Of a DNA stretch of 64,000 bases, positions 9,449 to 14,093 are shown piece after piece. Source of the stretch: Candidatus Vesicomyidisocius sp. Pext_18_S21 (GTDB lineage Bacteria > Pseudomonadota > Gammaproteobacteria > PS1 > Pseudothioglobaceae). Location: assembly GCA_021730165.1 (NCBI GenBank), contig CP072535.1, positions 637,798 through 701,797 on the forward strand. The letters run 5' to 3'. The position numbers and the translations under genes were made by a program. Numbering within the stretch: position 1 is the stretch's first letter; each line of letters begins with the position of its first letter. Below the pieces are notes generated by a model that was not told the DNA's origin, ran no database searches, and was given only the letters and a program-made list of their open reading frames with translations.

Positions 9449-9490
9449 ACTAATACTAATACTAATACTAATACTAATACTAATACTAAT
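9449..9490. repeat. Seven perfect copies of hexamer ACTAAT
   Basis: The unit ACTAAT is repeated seven times without mismatch in the short gap between the convergent msbA and TVP38-like genes. It is a second intergenic microsatellite besides the one at 783-846, with an unrelated unit. Confidence 0.95.
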
Positions 9491-9521: not shown

Positions 9522-10082
9522 TTAAAAATAATAACTTGAGTTAAAAATACCTGTGATAATTGAAATATAAAGAATTGAAGTGATAGAAGTTCCAGTAATG
9601 ACACCTATCAGAATATGTTTGAGTTTAATATCAATAACTGATAAAAAATAAATCAATACATTAATTGAAATACCAGGAATAAAACATAATACAAAAATAA
9701 TGGAAATTTTTTTGCTTTTAATTTTCTGTTCAAACTGAAGTATTTTTTCTGGTATTTTGAAATTAAGTTTATGAGAAAAATTATAAATAATTAAACAATA
9801 ACTTACAATAGCTATTTGAATAGCAAAAAATACCTGTATAAAAGAAAAAAGATAAATACCTGCTAATAAGAATATAGCTCCAGGTAAAAATGTCAAACCC
9901 CTAATAATCAGTATTGCAATATACATTAAATAAGAAATTAAAAAATTTTTTCCACTTAGAAAGTCTTTAAGCATATCTAGATCAATCTTATACCCATTTA
10001 AGTAAAAATAAACTACCAAAGAAACATTAAGCAAAATAAAACTATAAAAAAGATATTTTTTATTAATACTCTCCATGATCAA
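9522..10082 (-). CDS. TVP38/TMEM64 (VTT/DedA-type) membrane protein
   Basis: Integral membrane protein of 186 residues with about five hydrophobic segments. The signature region RGLTFLPGAIFLLAGIYLF (about residues 61-80) and the later ISIIFVLCFIPGISINVLIYF resemble the paired re-entrant loops of TVP38/TMEM64 proteins, whose bacterial members act in lipid scrambling or transport. The start overlaps the upstream ATP-grasp gene by up to 20 bases (M3 would shorten this to 14), so it is the last gene of the decarboxylase/dioxygenase operon. It may export or tolerate the operon's product; that is inference. Confidence 0.65.
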   Translation of the reverse strand: MIMESINKKYLFYSFILLNVSLVVYFYLNGYKIDLDMLKDFLSGKNFLISYLMYIAILIIRGLTFLPGAIFLLAGIYLFSFIQVFFAIQIAIVSYCLIIYNFSHKLNFKIPEKILQFEQKIKSKKISIIFVLCFIPGISINVLIYFLSVIDIKLKHILIGVITGTSITSILYISIITGIFNSSYYF

Positions 10083-10962
10083 AAATTTGTATTTTATCTA
10101 ATTGATGATAGAAAATTGATAAATCTTCACTTTTTCCATATCTTGGCTTATTATGCATTGCTAAAAATGGACGTGAGTTAAGTTCTAAAAAAATACACGC
10201 TTGTGCATTAAAATCAATCTCAATACCTTGCTTACAAATCACATCAATACCTAAAATATTAGCATCAAAAAAATTGAGTATCTTTTCCAAGTCTTGTCTA
10301 TTTTTTTCGGTTAATATTTTCTTATCAATAATTTCAACACTAGAACCTAATTTTAATGATATTTTATAATGTAAATACACCTTCTGTCCAATGTTAGGAA
10401 CACTAGATAAATTCATTTGTTGTTTCTTTAAATATTGTTTAATAGCTAAATTTTTAGGGATAGGCTTAATAATTGGCGATAAATCCATCTTTTTTCTAAC
10501 CATATTCTCGTTATCAATCAACTTGGCTATATCACTCACATCATCACCGATAACAAAAGGAGGATAACGTCTAAGTATCGACATTACCCCAAACTTAGTC
10601 ATAACTATACGATAATTTTTACCTAATAAATATTTCTCAACAATACTCACTAACCACCATTTTTTAACGCTTAAACTAGCTTTAACTAATTGTATATAAG
10701 TGTTAATAGGAAAATACGCTCCTCTAGAGAACCCACCAACATTAGGTTTAACAACTAAAGGAAAACCATTTTTTTTAGCAAATTTAAATGCAGTAATAGG
10801 ATTAATAAATATTTTACCTTGAGCATAAGGAAAATTATTTTCCTTAAAAGCCATTCTAGCTTGTGCCTTAGAACGACAAGCACGCCGTATTTTAAGTGGA
10901 TTATAATCACTACATCCTGATAAAAAAAATCGTGATAAAAATCGATGCAACCAATACTTCAT
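10063..10962 (-). CDS. ATP-grasp ligase, GshAB/cyanophycin-synthetase-like
   Basis: Protein of 299 residues with an ATP-grasp fold. FPLVVKPNVGGFSRG (about residue 67) is the first nucleotide-binding lysine motif. YRIVMTKFGVMSILRRYPPF followed by VIGDD...IAKLIDNEN strongly resembles the equivalent part of GshAB and cyanophycin synthetase. The C-terminal metal/ATP site is FLELNSRPFLAMHNKPRYG. Such enzymes join a carboxylate to an amine through an acyl-phosphate. The gene overlaps both neighbours (ATGA with the upstream one). The substrate is unknown; given the operon, a hypotaurine- or cysteine-derived amine is a reasonable guess. Confidence 0.75.
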   Translation of the reverse strand: MKYWLHRFLSRFFLSGCSDYNPLKIRRACRSKAQARMAFKENNFPYAQGKIFINPITAFKFAKKNGFPLVVKPNVGGFSRGAYFPINTYIQLVKASLSVKKWWLVSIVEKYLLGKNYRIVMTKFGVMSILRRYPPFVIGDDVSDIAKLIDNENMVRKKMDLSPIIKPIPKNLAIKQYLKKQQMNLSSVPNIGQKVYLHYKISLKLGSSVEIIDKKILTEKNRQDLEKILNFFDANILGIDVICKQGIEIDFNAQACIFLELNSRPFLAMHNKPRYGKSEDLSIFYHQLDKIQIFDHGEY

Positions 10963-11768
10963 AATTCAACTTTTGATTGGTAATGTTTAATGACTTTTTT
11001 AAAAAATACGAAACGATTAAAATGTTCCTTAGGTGTTGTGTTACTAATTTTAACAAGGTGATACATATTATCTTTAATAAACTGATGTTTATTTTTTTTT
11101 GAAATACTATTATCTAGTAGATTAAGCGGAAATGGTGCAAATAAATTAACCTCAATAATATGAAACATACCTTTCAATAAATCTTGTTTAGAATTGGATC
11201 TAAGTCCCACTCTAGCGATTCGAAAATATGGTAATTCTTGCAAATAATTGTGCAATTTTTTAAGTTCACGGAGTGAGAAATCTAATGTACAGTCTTGATA
11301 AATTACCTGTTTGTTATTAATACTATTCACAGGATAAGACTCACCTGAATGGTTGATTACTTGAGTAATTGTTAATGTAATACAATTTGTTTCATTATCA
11401 GAATTTCGAATATAGAAAATCTCATATTCTTGCATTTCTATTGCCACTTCTTGAACAATGTAAGGAATTTTACTTTTTTTATGATTAAAAGCTAAAAATT
11501 CATCTCTTGAATCGATTCTTTTGATACCATTAGAATTCTGTCCCCACTCTGGCTTTAAAAACACAGGAAATTTACAAGGTGGATTGTTTTTATCAAGATA
11601 AGCTTGTTTTAATCTCCATTTTAATGGGATGCGTTTATCCATATCAATTTTAGAATAAAACCCTTTTTTCTTATTATACCATTCAGCATTAATTTGGAAA
11701 TAATACCAAGGTGGAATACCAAGTCTTAATGACCAATAAATATAGTAAAAAATTAACCTAAAAGTCAA
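10959..11768 (-). CDS. Second ATP-grasp-like protein
   Basis: Protein of 269 residues. The segment FPVFLKPEWGQNSNGIKRI (about residues 68-86) matches the lysine/glycine-rich ATP-binding strand of ATP-grasp enzymes, and IPYIVQEVAIEMQEYEIFYI matches the adjacent adenine-binding strand. The C-terminal part (FHIIEVNLFAPFPLNLLD) carries the E-x-N metal-site motif. It differs clearly from the neighbouring ATP-grasp protein, so this is not a recent duplication. It overlaps the dioxygenase gene by 11 bases and the next gene by 4. It may form a two-step ligation pair with its neighbour; the function is unknown. Confidence 0.65.
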   Translation of the reverse strand: MTFRLIFYYIYWSLRLGIPPWYYFQINAEWYNKKKGFYSKIDMDKRIPLKWRLKQAYLDKNNPPCKFPVFLKPEWGQNSNGIKRIDSRDEFLAFNHKKSKIPYIVQEVAIEMQEYEIFYIRNSDNETNCITLTITQVINHSGESYPVNSINNKQVIYQDCTLDFSLRELKKLHNYLQELPYFRIARVGLRSNSKQDLLKGMFHIIEVNLFAPFPLNLLDNSISKKNKHQFIKDNMYHLVKISNTTPKEHFNRFVFFKKVIKHYQSKVEL

Positions 11769-12246
11769 AAATTTCTCCTTTGATAGGGTTATCGGAATAA
11801 AAATGTAAACTTAAGCTTAGCTCGATAGCACTAATTTGATGAATATCATTATCCATTTTTCCTTTCACACTATTACTATATTTACACGTTCCATCAACAA
11901 GCTTACTACTATTAATCTTAGTCAATGGATTCTTATTAAAATCTTTGCACATTAACTGACCCTTAATTACATAAATAAAAGCACGGTCTGGATGCCCATG
12001 AATACGTGTTATTGCTCCTTTATCCCAATTTAATAGACCTAGCCAATAACTTTTATTATTAATAATAATATTTCTTGTGTAATTATACTGATCAAATAAT
12101 AAAGTCTCTAAATCTATTTCTAAAGTTAGTGTTTTTATTTTCTCAATAGCTAAAGCATATTTTTCCTCATGAAGTAATACACACAACATCTTAAAATCAA
12201 AATTAGTTGAATGCGTATAATACGTATTTTGAATTTCTTTAAACAT
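11758..12246 (-). CDS. Cysteine dioxygenase (type I, cupin)
   Basis: Cupin of 162 residues. It keeps the thiol-dioxygenase iron ligands: H83 and H85 in RIHGHPDRAF and H136 in DIHQI, plus the active-site tyrosine at 150 in LHFYSDN. FDQYNYTRN (51-59) is nearly identical to the mammalian cysteine dioxygenase segment whose arginine binds the cysteine carboxylate. This favours cysteine over 3-mercaptopropionate as substrate. The family converts cysteine to cysteine sulfinate with O2. It overlaps the decarboxylase by 8 bases, giving the two enzymes of hypotaurine synthesis side by side. Confidence 0.8.
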   Translation of the reverse strand: MFKEIQNTYYTHSTNFDFKMLCVLLHEEKYALAIEKIKTLTLEIDLETLLFDQYNYTRNIIINNKSYWLGLLNWDKGAITRIHGHPDRAFIYVIKGQLMCKDFNKNPLTKINSSKLVDGTCKYSNSVKGKMDNDIHQISAIELSLSLHFYSDNPIKGEIFDF

Positions 12247-13627
12247 TATTTAATGTTCTTCCTCTCTTAACCAAACGATTAAGTAAACTAACTAATTTCA
12301 CTTTATTCATATTAATATTACTAATTAACAATCTAAATACTAATTTTTTTTCCACGTATGCTAAAGCTAGTAAGGCTTGTTGTCCATGATATAAACTATC
12401 ACGTAAGCATTGATTAAAATCATTTTTATTAGAATGCCTACTTTTAAAGCGAAAACATACATTAAAGGAAGTACGTTTAAGTACCATTTCTAAATCAACA
12501 TTAGCGTTAATAAAATCTTCAGCAAATTTTGCCAGTTGATAATAATTCTCAACTCTATCAGAAAACCCTTTCCTGGTATAGAATTTCCAATCTAAAAACC
12601 ATTTTAAACTATCAACACGACGACCACATTGCAATGAAGAAATACCTAAATCAGCCTCATTATCTCTAAAAATATAGCTACCATCTCCATCTGCACAAGT
12701 ACATGATAATAAATGTTTATGATTTAACAATAAAAAATTACACATTAAATTACTACCCAACATTTTGTGAAAGTCCATAGTAAAAGAATCTAGAGACTCA
12801 ATACTTGTTAAAAATTTCTTTTTTAATTTCAAACTCATAATTGCCACCCCGCCCCATGCGCCATCACCATGTAACCAAAAATTATGTTGCTTTTTCAGCA
12901 TAGTTAACGCTTCAATATTGTCATAAGCACCTCGTACTGTTGTACCTAATGTTGCACAAACAAAAAATACTAAGCCACCTTGTTGTTTGATTTGCTTGAT
13001 TTTATCATTAAGTAATGTTGTATTTATTGAGCCATCTTCAAGAGTAGCTACCTTAATTAAATGATTTGTACCAATACCTAATATATTGCTTGCTTTGTCT
13101 AATGAATAATGTGCATCCTCATTAACAAAAGCAAACAAATATTTCTGGTTAAATAATCCTTGTTTTTTTACCTTTTTCAATGCTTGATTACGTGCAACCA
13201 TCATAGCAATCATATTGGCATTACTAGATCCTGTAGTCATCTGTCCTTCGCCATTTTTAAAACCTACTATATTAAGCATTTGTTTAATCATGTATTTTTC
13301 CATTAACGTCGCAACAGGTGCAGATTCAAAAGTGCAATTTGAAGTATTACTTAGTGCAGTTACAATTTCACCTACAATAGAAGGTTGATTAGCACCAGAC
13401 CACATACGATTAGCAAAATTAGGATGACTAGTATTAGGAGAATATTCTAGATATTGTTCTACCCATGTAAATATCTCATCCCAACACTGTGGATTTTGTT
13501 TGTTTAAATTTAAGGTTTTTTCTAACTTATTAATGGTTTGATAATTAATGAGTTGATTAGATTTTTTAAAATTTGAAGTAGCTAAGACTTGGGTTATTTT
13601 TTGTAAAACCTCCTGATCTTGCATCAA
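12239..13627 (-). CDS. PLP-dependent group II amino acid decarboxylase, probable cysteine sulfinate decarboxylase
   Basis: Protein of 462 residues of the glutamate/aspartate/cysteine-sulfinate decarboxylase family. Visible marks are HPNFANRMWSG (69-79), TTGSSNANM (131-139), AHYSLDKA (172-179), the PLP aspartate in HGDGAWGG (D255) and the Schiff-base lysine K288 in MDFHKMLG. Family members accept glutamate, aspartate, cysteine sulfinate or aromatic amino acids and sequence alone does not decide. The cysteine dioxygenase immediately downstream, in an overlapping frame, points to cysteine sulfinate and thus hypotaurine. The gene starts 1 base after the stop of the membrane protein gene. Confidence 0.8.
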   Translation of the reverse strand: MMQDQEVLQKITQVLATSNFKKSNQLINYQTINKLEKTLNLNKQNPQCWDEIFTWVEQYLEYSPNTSHPNFANRMWSGANQPSIVGEIVTALSNTSNCTFESAPVATLMEKYMIKQMLNIVGFKNGEGQMTTGSSNANMIAMMVARNQALKKVKKQGLFNQKYLFAFVNEDAHYSLDKASNILGIGTNHLIKVATLEDGSINTTLLNDKIKQIKQQGGLVFFVCATLGTTVRGAYDNIEALTMLKKQHNFWLHGDGAWGGVAIMSLKLKKKFLTSIESLDSFTMDFHKMLGSNLMCNFLLLNHKHLLSCTCADGDGSYIFRDNEADLGISSLQCGRRVDSLKWFLDWKFYTRKGFSDRVENYYQLAKFAEDFINANVDLEMVLKRTSFNVCFRFKSRHSNKNDFNQCLRDSLYHGQQALLALAYVEKKLVFRLLISNINMNKVKLVSLLNRLVKRGRTLNNV

Positions 13628-13628
13628 A

Positions 13629-14093
13629 TTAAGCTCGTTTATTTAAAATAAACATTACAATACCTAAAACTAAAATAGAAAAAACTACATTCGCCAAGCC
13701 TGAATTAGTTTGTATTTCTCCATTCTGATTCCATTTAACTATCCACTCCAATGGAATAAATAAATAAAATAATACTGAACATGTCATCACCAATAACACC
13801 ATTAAACCACTAATGAAACGTAAATTTTTTCTTAAATACCAAAAAATAATAAAAGATAACATAACTAAAAAAGTAAATAACTTAAAACCATTAATAACAT
13901 AAGAGTTATATTGAACAGATAATTCACTTATCATACCACCTAGAAAATTACTCATCCAAACACCAAAAATAAAAAAGATATATAATGATTCTATTGCATA
14001 ACTAGTAAATGTATAAGGTAATAAGCTTAAAAAAACATACGATATCCATAAGACAACCAACCAACCAACAACAACTTTAATGGCATTATTCAT
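13629..14093 (-). CDS. Hypothetical four-helix membrane protein
   Basis: Protein of 154 residues with about four predicted transmembrane helices (around residues 7-27, 33-54, 71-88 and 93-113, plus a C-terminal one at 133-150). I do not recognise the family. It is the first gene of the probable operon with the decarboxylase, cysteine dioxygenase and ATP-grasp genes, only 1 base before the decarboxylase start, so a transport or membrane-anchoring role in the same process is possible. Confidence 0.6.
   Translation of the reverse strand: MNNAIKVVVGWLVVLWISYVFLSLLPYTFTSYAIESLYIFFIFGVWMSNFLGGMISELSVQYNSYVINGFKLFTFLVMLSFIIFWYLRKNLRFISGLMVLLVMTCSVLFYLFIPLEWIVKWNQNGEIQTNSGLANVVFSILVLGIVMFILNKRA

What the first reader, a model, noticed from the sequence alone, without database searches (positions are those of the whole stretch)
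9522..14093. Six-gene operon combining cysteine dioxygenase, a group II decarboxylase, two ATP-grasp ligases and two membrane proteins
Seen: six minus-strand genes with a 1-base gap or overlaps of 4-20 bases. Known: cysteine dioxygenase (with the FDQY.YTRN substrate-arginine segment and H83/H85/H136/Y150) plus a cysteine-sulfinate-type decarboxylase gives hypotaurine. Hypotaurine and thiotaurine are sulfide-storing osmolytes of vent and seep animals. Inference: a sulfur-oxidising symbiont keeping this pathway would make hypotaurine itself. The two ATP-grasp enzymes suggest the amine is further joined to a carboxylate, giving a conjugate not described to my knowledge, which the membrane proteins might export. 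Keeping six genes in a reduced genome argues for selection.
Basis: partly seen in the sequence, partly recalled or inferred. Interest (0 to 1): 0.85.

Follow-up and report, generated by a model that had tools for sequence, protein, structure and literature searches.

The report
Twin-ligase operon for a hypotaurine conjugate
A sulfur-oxidising symbiont carries an operon with a cysteine-dioxygenase-like gene, an unusual amino-acid decarboxylase and two ATP-grasp ligases that likely makes hypotaurine from cysteine and would join it to another molecule; the same two ligases, with or without the other genes, occur side by side in several other bacterial groups, and the papers searched describe no product of them.

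Summary
The six-gene observation is confirmed. The two ATP-grasp genes (AG1, AG2) are the core: AG2 follows AG1 in 75 of 80 loci, mostly with an MFS-like protein next, whose slot a VTT protein takes in Thioglobaceae. The dioxygenase (CDO) and decarboxylase (DEC) are an add-on: 40 of 68 loci with enough upstream sequence have neither intact. The best support that their product feeds the ligases: among 369 gammaproteobacterial genomes AG1 occurs in 11, and 6 of 7 CSAD/GAD-type decarboxylases lie in those genomes (the seventh is cut by a contig end); three are unlinked to AG1, each beside a CDO, one with the canonical CSAD motif. Against a simple CSAD call: the window family's motif is W-S-C, not F-S-Y, and it is a separate clade. 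Five genes are under purifying selection; the first membrane gene is decaying here. In 14 of 25 family genomes the operon is gone or only remnants are left. Substrates, product and export are untested.

The parts
13629..14093 (-). MEM: four-helix membrane protein, decaying in this lineage
12239..13627 (-). DEC: PLP group II decarboxylase of the CSAD/GADL1/GAD group, motif W76-S96-C98
   Evidence: Pfam 234.7 bits; family profile against PDB: CSAD 347, GADL1 346, GAD1 345 bits; K288 and R432 conserved; motif; tree
11758..12246 (-). CDO: cysteine-dioxygenase-like cupin
   Evidence: Pfam CDO_I 32.9 bits over cut-off; rat CDO E 4.5e-8; iron His, Arg and Ser-His-Tyr positions aligned
10959..11768 (-). 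AG1: ATP-grasp ligase, under every Pfam and NCBIfam cut-off
10063..10962 (-). AG2: ATP-grasp ligase like the ATP-grasp domain of cyanophycin synthetase / C-terminal part of GshF
   Evidence: NCBIfam cya_phycin_syn 124 bits over model 212-462 of 862; PDB 7ta5 E 8.7e-18; invariant K72, E260, N262
9522..10082 (-). VTT-domain membrane protein in the slot where other loci have an MFS-like protein
   Evidence: Pfam VTT 34.2 bits, cut-off 33.9; of 66 loci with 2.5 kb held downstream 50 have MFS, 11 VTT, 0 both, 5 neither

Best explanation
The window carries a six-gene minus-strand operon whose cysteine-dioxygenase-like cupin and GAD/CSAD-group decarboxylase likely turn cysteine into hypotaurine, and whose two ATP-grasp ligases are predicted to join that amine to a carboxylate in a peptide-like product. 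Shown: the genes, their order, the enzyme families, the catalytic residues, and the co-occurrence of CSAD/GAD-type decarboxylases with AG1 also in genomes where the two are not linked. Inferred: CDO makes cysteine sulfinate; DEC (motif W-S-C) decarboxylates it; AG1 (LysX/Ddl-like fold) makes a first amide bond; AG2, kin to enzymes that add an amino acid or glycine to a peptide carboxyl end, caps that product with hypotaurine, much as glycine caps glutathione. The VTT protein is predicted to stand in for the MFS exporter of other loci. CDO and DEC would be a supply module: it can be lost while the ligases stay, as in two Bathymodiolus symbionts whose hosts might supply the amine, and in one genome an unlinked CDO plus canonical-motif CSAD pair may take its place.
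For: AG2 after AG1 in 75 of 80 loci (74 of the 77 with 1 kb or more held downstream); DEC and CDO both upstream of AG1 in 22 of 68 loci with 2.6 kb held upstream. In 369 class-wide genomes AG1 is in 11 and decarboxylases over 330 bits are in 7: 6 of 7 share the genome with AG1, Fisher p 9.5e-10 without kinship correction; by family 5 of 5 fall in the 7 AG1 families, of at least 182 (p 1.3e-8). In the seventh (G399) the contig ends inside DEC, before the place where its sister genome G304 has AG1. Three of the six are on other contigs than AG1, each beside a CDO: one is F-S-Y (canonical CSAD motif), two are W-S-Y, halfway to W-S-C. So decarboxylases that the tree puts in two lineages, both paired with CDO, occur in AG1 genomes. 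CDO keeps the substrate Arg in 15 of 16 aligned. dN/dS for DEC, CDO, AG1, AG2 is 0.06-0.13 and for VTT 0.15 against L014 and L015. DEC and CDO alone decayed in G024/L144, and in L016, with AG1, AG2, VTT and MEM open.
Against: The selectivity motif is not that of CSAD, and the clade is separate; the family profile scores CSAD, GADL1 and GAD alike. 40 of 68 loci have neither DEC nor CDO intact; 5 of the 11 AG1 genomes of the sample have no such decarboxylase, though at most four decarboxylase candidates per genome were scored. Four DEC loci lack CDO (L026, L040, L055, L090) and no CDO was found elsewhere in those genomes (drafts), so DEC may use a substrate that needs no CDO there. CDO as such is not tied to AG1. 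No substrate or product is known for AG1 or AG2. VTT as exporter rests on slot sharing only; against the closest relative L013 its dN/dS is 0.71, on few changes (dS 0.06).
Confidence: 0.5

Rival explanations
1. DEC works on cysteate and yields taurine directly, so the conjugated amine is taurine; CDO is used only where oxygen allows.
For: Four DEC loci without CDO, two of them (L055, L090) labelled deltaproteobacteria/Desulfobulbaceae; a pocket narrowed at X1 by Trp could take small acidic side chains (inference).
Against: CDO is adjacent in 22 of 26 DEC loci with enough upstream sequence held, some of them labelled Desulfobulbaceae or Desulfobacterales, and follows the unlinked DECs in G251, G318 and G109.
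Confidence: 0.2
2. DEC is an aspartate decarboxylase that makes beta-alanine, and the ligases make a beta-alanyl peptide of the carnosine kind; CDO serves another step.
For: Best single-sequence PDB hit is GADL1, which acts on Asp and CSA and has Tyr where GAD has Ser (PMC7367687, section 10 read; I equate this position with X1); carnosine synthase is an ATP-grasp protein (title in its reference list).
Against: CDO pairing in two decarboxylase lineages; DEC lost in sister symbionts G003, G006, G010. Whether this genome has panD could not be tested.
Confidence: 0.18
3. AG1/AG2 make a conjugate unrelated to hypotaurine; the CDO/DEC pair makes free hypotaurine or taurine as an osmolyte, and their neighbourhood reflects a shared marine life style.
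For: 40 of 68 AG1 loci lack both; CDO as such is not tied to AG1: 17 of 369 genomes have PF05995 hits, only G014 and G109 of them among the 11 with AG1, although that search missed the CDOs of G000, G251 and G318.
Against: Overlapping reading frames of DEC, CDO, AG1 and AG2; 22 loci labelled Gammaproteobacteria, Desulfobulbales/Desulfobacterales and SAR324 keep the arrangement; near-exclusive co-occurrence of the decarboxylase with AG1.
Confidence: 0.25

Closest known systems
Bacterial taurine pathway: CDO plus CSAD (Agnello et al. 2013; content recalled, seen only as cited)
   Same: CDO beside a CSAD/GAD-group decarboxylase; the pair in L128/L173, in an AG1 genome, has the canonical F-S-Y motif
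   Different: Window decarboxylase is W-S-C in a separate clade; two ligases and a membrane protein follow
Animal CSAD, GADL1, GAD (2jis, 6enz, 3vp6, 2okk)
   Same: Fold family, catalytic Lys, carboxylate-binding Arg (the role of that Arg is recalled)
   Different: NRMW in place of NQLF/NQLY/NQLS; Cys at X3
Cyanophycin synthetase / GshF ATP-grasp domain
   Same: AG2 matches that domain over about 250 residues
   Different: Stand-alone protein of 299 residues without the other domains
LysX/ArgX, RimK, Ddl ligases
   Different: 7-16% identity in the VIA rows shown; below all family cut-offs
Cupin plus ATP-grasp peptide operons (Biol Direct 2010, PMC2922099, passages read)
   Same: Metal cupin oxygenase with one or two ATP-grasp peptide ligases in predicted operons
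   Different: The passages seen describe other cupin proteins with Rieske proteins, methylases or a methionyl-tRNA synthetase paralogue; the word decarboxylase does not occur in that paper's main text

Membership tests
Cysteine dioxygenase type I | Profile match over curated cut-off | tested here: met
   32.9 bits against 23
Cysteine dioxygenase type I | Three iron His, substrate Arg, Ser-His-Tyr | tested here: met
   Window aligned with rat CDO. Relatives vary: Arg in 15 of 16 (Lys in L020), Tyr is Ser in L035 and L054 and Phe in L172, the last His is Asn in L128
Cysteine dioxygenase type I | Cysteine oxidised to cysteine sulfinate | not testable with these tools
   No assay
Cysteine sulfinate decarboxylase (CSAD) | PLP lysine and carboxylate-binding Arg | tested here: met
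   K288, R432
Cysteine sulfinate decarboxylase (CSAD) | Selectivity motif F-19aa-S-aa-Y | tested here: not met
   W-S-C in window; 28 of 29 rows W-S-C, one W-S-G; motif rule itself recalled
Cysteine sulfinate decarboxylase (CSAD) | Groups with animal CSAD | tested here: not met
   W clade of 21 rows apart, support 100/98; only L128 (F-S-Y) joins the animal enzymes, 96/89, on a long branch that the tree tool warns about
ATP-grasp (AG1) | Fold | tested here: met
ATP-grasp (AG1) | Pfam/NCBIfam cut-off of a named subfamily | tested here: not met
   Best 15.6 against 24 bits, and 21.8 against 271
Cyanophycin synthetase (AG2) | Full-length equivalog score and domains | tested here: not met
   124 bits against 850; only model 212-462 of 862 covered
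VTT-domain protein | Profile over cut-off | tested here: met
   34.2 against 33.9 bits, marginal
NACHO/DoxX-like four-helix protein (MEM) | Fold | tested here: inconclusive

The most novel reading that the evidence does not exclude
Marine bacteria of several classes share an undescribed twin ATP-grasp pathway that caps a peptide with hypotaurine or taurine; chemosynthetic clam and mussel symbionts run it from cysteine with their own CDO and a third specificity class of acidic decarboxylase (W-S-C), or from the host's hypotaurine pool once that supply module is lost, tying a host osmolyte that stores sulfide to a symbiont metabolite.
Probability: 0.33. Interest if true: 0.85.

Novelty: new variant of a known kind. 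Interest (0 to 1): 0.62.

Why it matters
If right, it gives a concrete enzyme route for a sulfinate- or sulfonate-capped metabolite in marine bacteria, would explain why 6 of the 7 CSAD/GAD-type decarboxylases in the gammaproteobacterial sample sit in genomes with these two ligases, and makes testable how symbionts and their hosts share hypotaurine. It also turns a recurring pair of unnamed ATP-grasp genes into a defined target in named, cultured genera such as Neptunomonas and Colwellia.

Tried and rejected
A plain CSAD label was rejected on motif and tree. 'Six genes, one unit' was rejected on synteny. VTT or MEM as shown exporter was rejected: only slot sharing and a weak fold match. The VTT-oxidoreductase fusion and the DinB, TANGO2 and YHS neighbours were annotated but not made part of the system: none is in the window operon. 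The PF05995 search was too insensitive to show absence (it missed the linked CDO of L041's genome and the window's own), so an alignment search was run on 38 genomes. Promoter and terminator scan: 47 promoter-like sites against 47.3 expected, no use. Whether panD is in the genome could not be tested beyond the window, where only chance-level hits appear. Ten paper searches (terms such as hypotaurine with ATP-grasp, cysteine dioxygenase with symbiont, Thioglobus with hypotaurine, Vesicomyosocius with taurine, ATP-grasp with taurine, thiotaurine with symbiont) listed no paper that by title, abstract start or the passages I read describes this cluster. I saw passages (of one, also a section) of ten papers and the whole text of none. 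Only open-licence papers are held; Agnello 2013 and an ATP-grasp survey by Iyer et al. (recalled) were not. No DoxX protein was seen among the VIA rows, which excludes nothing.

Dropped rows: decarboxylases under 380 residues and loci before L009 were left out; L012 and L026 are the same gene. The L013 MEM value is void (frameshifted copy). In the decarboxylase count, G006 (broken gene) and G311, G282 (216-226 bits, other motifs, outgroup) were left out of the seven. In one search loci with under 2.6 kb upstream (12 of 80) or under 2.5 kb downstream (14 of 80) were left out of those two counts.
Full report
1. What is there. Families: a four-helix protein with a NACHO-like arrangement at best (MEM), a group II PLP decarboxylase (DEC), a cysteine-dioxygenase-like cupin (CDO), two ATP-grasp proteins (AG1, AG2) and a VTT protein. 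The window lies in a one-contig genome of 1,023,779 bases. The nearest named record among the loci, Candidatus Vesicomyosocius sp. Agig_15_S12, has AG1 at 97%; another unnamed relative has 1,022,154 bases, which I recall as the length of Ca. Vesicomyosocius okutanii.

2. The ligases are the core. A protein search found 144 AG1 relatives, and a scan of one-genome-per-species contigs confirmed 174, of which the best 80 were kept as loci. In those 80, AG2 was found in 75 (74 of the 77 with 1 kb or more held downstream). Of 68 loci with at least 2.6 kb upstream, 22 have DEC and CDO, 4 DEC only, 2 CDO only, 40 neither; two of these 40 (L016, L023) keep decarboxylase fragments. Of 66 loci with 2.5 kb downstream, 50 have an MFS-like protein after AG2, 11 a VTT protein, none both, 5 neither (the MFS label rests on one member, below Pfam's cut-off). 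Loci without DEC/CDO are labelled Psychromonas, Colwellia, Neptunomonas, Endozoicomonas, Osedax symbionts and others; loci with them carry Thioglobus/Ruthia/Bathymodiolus-symbiont, Sedimenticola, Thiolapillus, Desulfobulbales and SAR324 labels. The AG1 model (pLDDT 91.7) is an ATP-grasp ligase nearest LysX/ArgX, synapsin, cyanophycin synthetase, RimK and Ddl, all within one Z unit. AG2 matches one domain of cyanophycin synthetase and GshF. The residues that I take for metal and ATP binding are conserved in both, so both should be active (inference).

3. The decarboxylase is not a canonical CSAD. The motif X1-19-X2-1-X3 of Agnello et al. (rule recalled; the paper is cited) reads F-S-Y in CSAD, Y-S-Y in GADL1, S-N-F in GAD1 in the alignments. 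The window reads W-S-C, as do 28 of 29 rows of the family, the other being W-S-G. PMC7367687 (section 10 read) explains that Tyr or Phe at what I take to be X1, in place of the Ser of GAD, shrinks the pocket so that Asp or CSA, not Glu, fits; Trp goes further in that direction (inference). The invariant NRMW puts an Arg where GAD and CSAD have Gln, which might help to hold an acidic side chain (inference). A tree of 38 sequences gives a W clade of 21 (100/98) apart from the animal enzymes; it warns of long branches for L128 and one outgroup.

4. Why I still think hypotaurine feeds the ligases. In an even sample of 369 gammaproteobacterial genomes, AG1 is in 11. Decarboxylases above 330 bits - a level that every CSAD, GADL1, GAD, F-S-Y, W-S-Y, W-S-C and Y-T-H sequence tried reaches (336 or more) - are in 7 (at most 4 candidates per genome scored, 6 for AG1). 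Six of the seven are in the 11. In the seventh, G399, the contig ends inside a W-S-C gene, before the place where AG1 follows, two bases on, in the sister genome G304. Fisher p is 9.5e-10 without kinship; at family level 5 of 5 fall among 7 of at least 182. The sample includes the window's own genome; without it the split is 5 of 6. In three of the six (G109, G251, G318) the decarboxylase is on another contig than AG1 and is followed by a CDO; G109's is F-S-Y, the other two W-S-Y. So canonical-motif and other CDO-decarboxylase pairs both occur in AG1 genomes. Results against: 5 of 11 AG1 genomes lack such a decarboxylase; Osedax symbiont, Oceanospirillaceae, Neptunomonas and Parendozoicomonas genomes have Y-T-H types unlinked to AG1; the Colwellia, Psychromonas and Endozoicomonas genomes tested have distant decarboxylases or none, no PF05995 hit, and at most weak partial hits to the CDO alignment in G041, so there the amine is imported or different. 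CDO by itself is not tied to AG1.

5. Fate in the family. Of 25 family genomes in the set of 40 relatives (window's included), 9 have DEC, AG1, AG2 and VTT without breaks, 8 of these also CDO (G019 has none); in one of the 9 (G021) the AG1 hit is listed with one stop inside the matched stretch, at its end. G024 has AG1, AG2, VTT and MEM open with DEC and CDO remnants; G011 has AG1 and CDO open, DEC and MEM broken, AG2 and VTT not found; G003, G006 and G010 keep remnants of DEC and MEM only; the other 11 gave no match for the five genes searched (MEM was not), bar a distant decarboxylase in G015. L016 (B. brooksi) also lost CDO and most of DEC but keeps the rest. Against L014 and L015, dN/dS is 0.12 for DEC, 0.06-0.10 CDO, 0.06-0.09 AG1, 0.12-0.13 AG2, 0.15 VTT, 0.09-0.10 for the flanking gene, but 0.49-0.56 for MEM; against the closest, L013, VTT is 0.71 on few changes. 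MEM in the window departs from 18 of 29 nearly invariant columns (hand count) and is frameshifted in L013/L150, one genome.

6. Host context. High thiotaurine is reported in vent and seep invertebrates, and mussel gill cells have been proposed to supply symbionts with thiotaurine and hypotaurine (PMC4655397, passages). The free-living relative Ca. Thioglobus autotrophicus grew on thiotaurine but not on taurine (PMC6509183, passages). Loss of only CDO and DEC in two mussel symbionts would fit a host supply (inference).

7. Verdict. Substrates, product and export are predictions.

Noticed in passing
window 9449-9490: Seven perfect copies of a 6-base repeat (ACTAAT) just downstream of the VTT gene, a candidate slippage site between convergent genes.
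   Followed up: no
L072, L074, L075, L086 (between MEM and AG1); also L042, L056: A VTT domain fused to a pyridine-nucleotide disulfide oxidoreductase (about 720 residues) sits beside AG1 in Osedax symbionts and others; a second VTT link, which hints at redox chemistry.
   Followed up: partly
L027 6610-10254: An Arcobacteraceae record carries AG1, AG2 and VTT at 59% AG1 identity to the window, with DinB and TANGO2-like genes before them: looks like transfer between phyla or a misbinned contig.
   Followed up: no
L036, L060, L062, L079 and others downstream of the MFS gene: DinB-like and, in some, TANGO2-like genes recur after AG1-AG2-MFS, and a YHS-domain protein recurs before MEM or AG1; role unknown.
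   Followed up: partly
G047, G051, G052, G054, G055, G059 (L129-L136): A third acidic-decarboxylase class with motif Y-T-H (one Y-V-H) in AG1 genomes, sister to the W clade; five of the six genomes have a PF05995 hit.
   Followed up: partly
window 10959-11768, residues 2-25 of AG1: AG1 begins with a moderately hydrophobic helix (family median a little higher than the window's), possibly a membrane contact near the transporter.
   Followed up: partly
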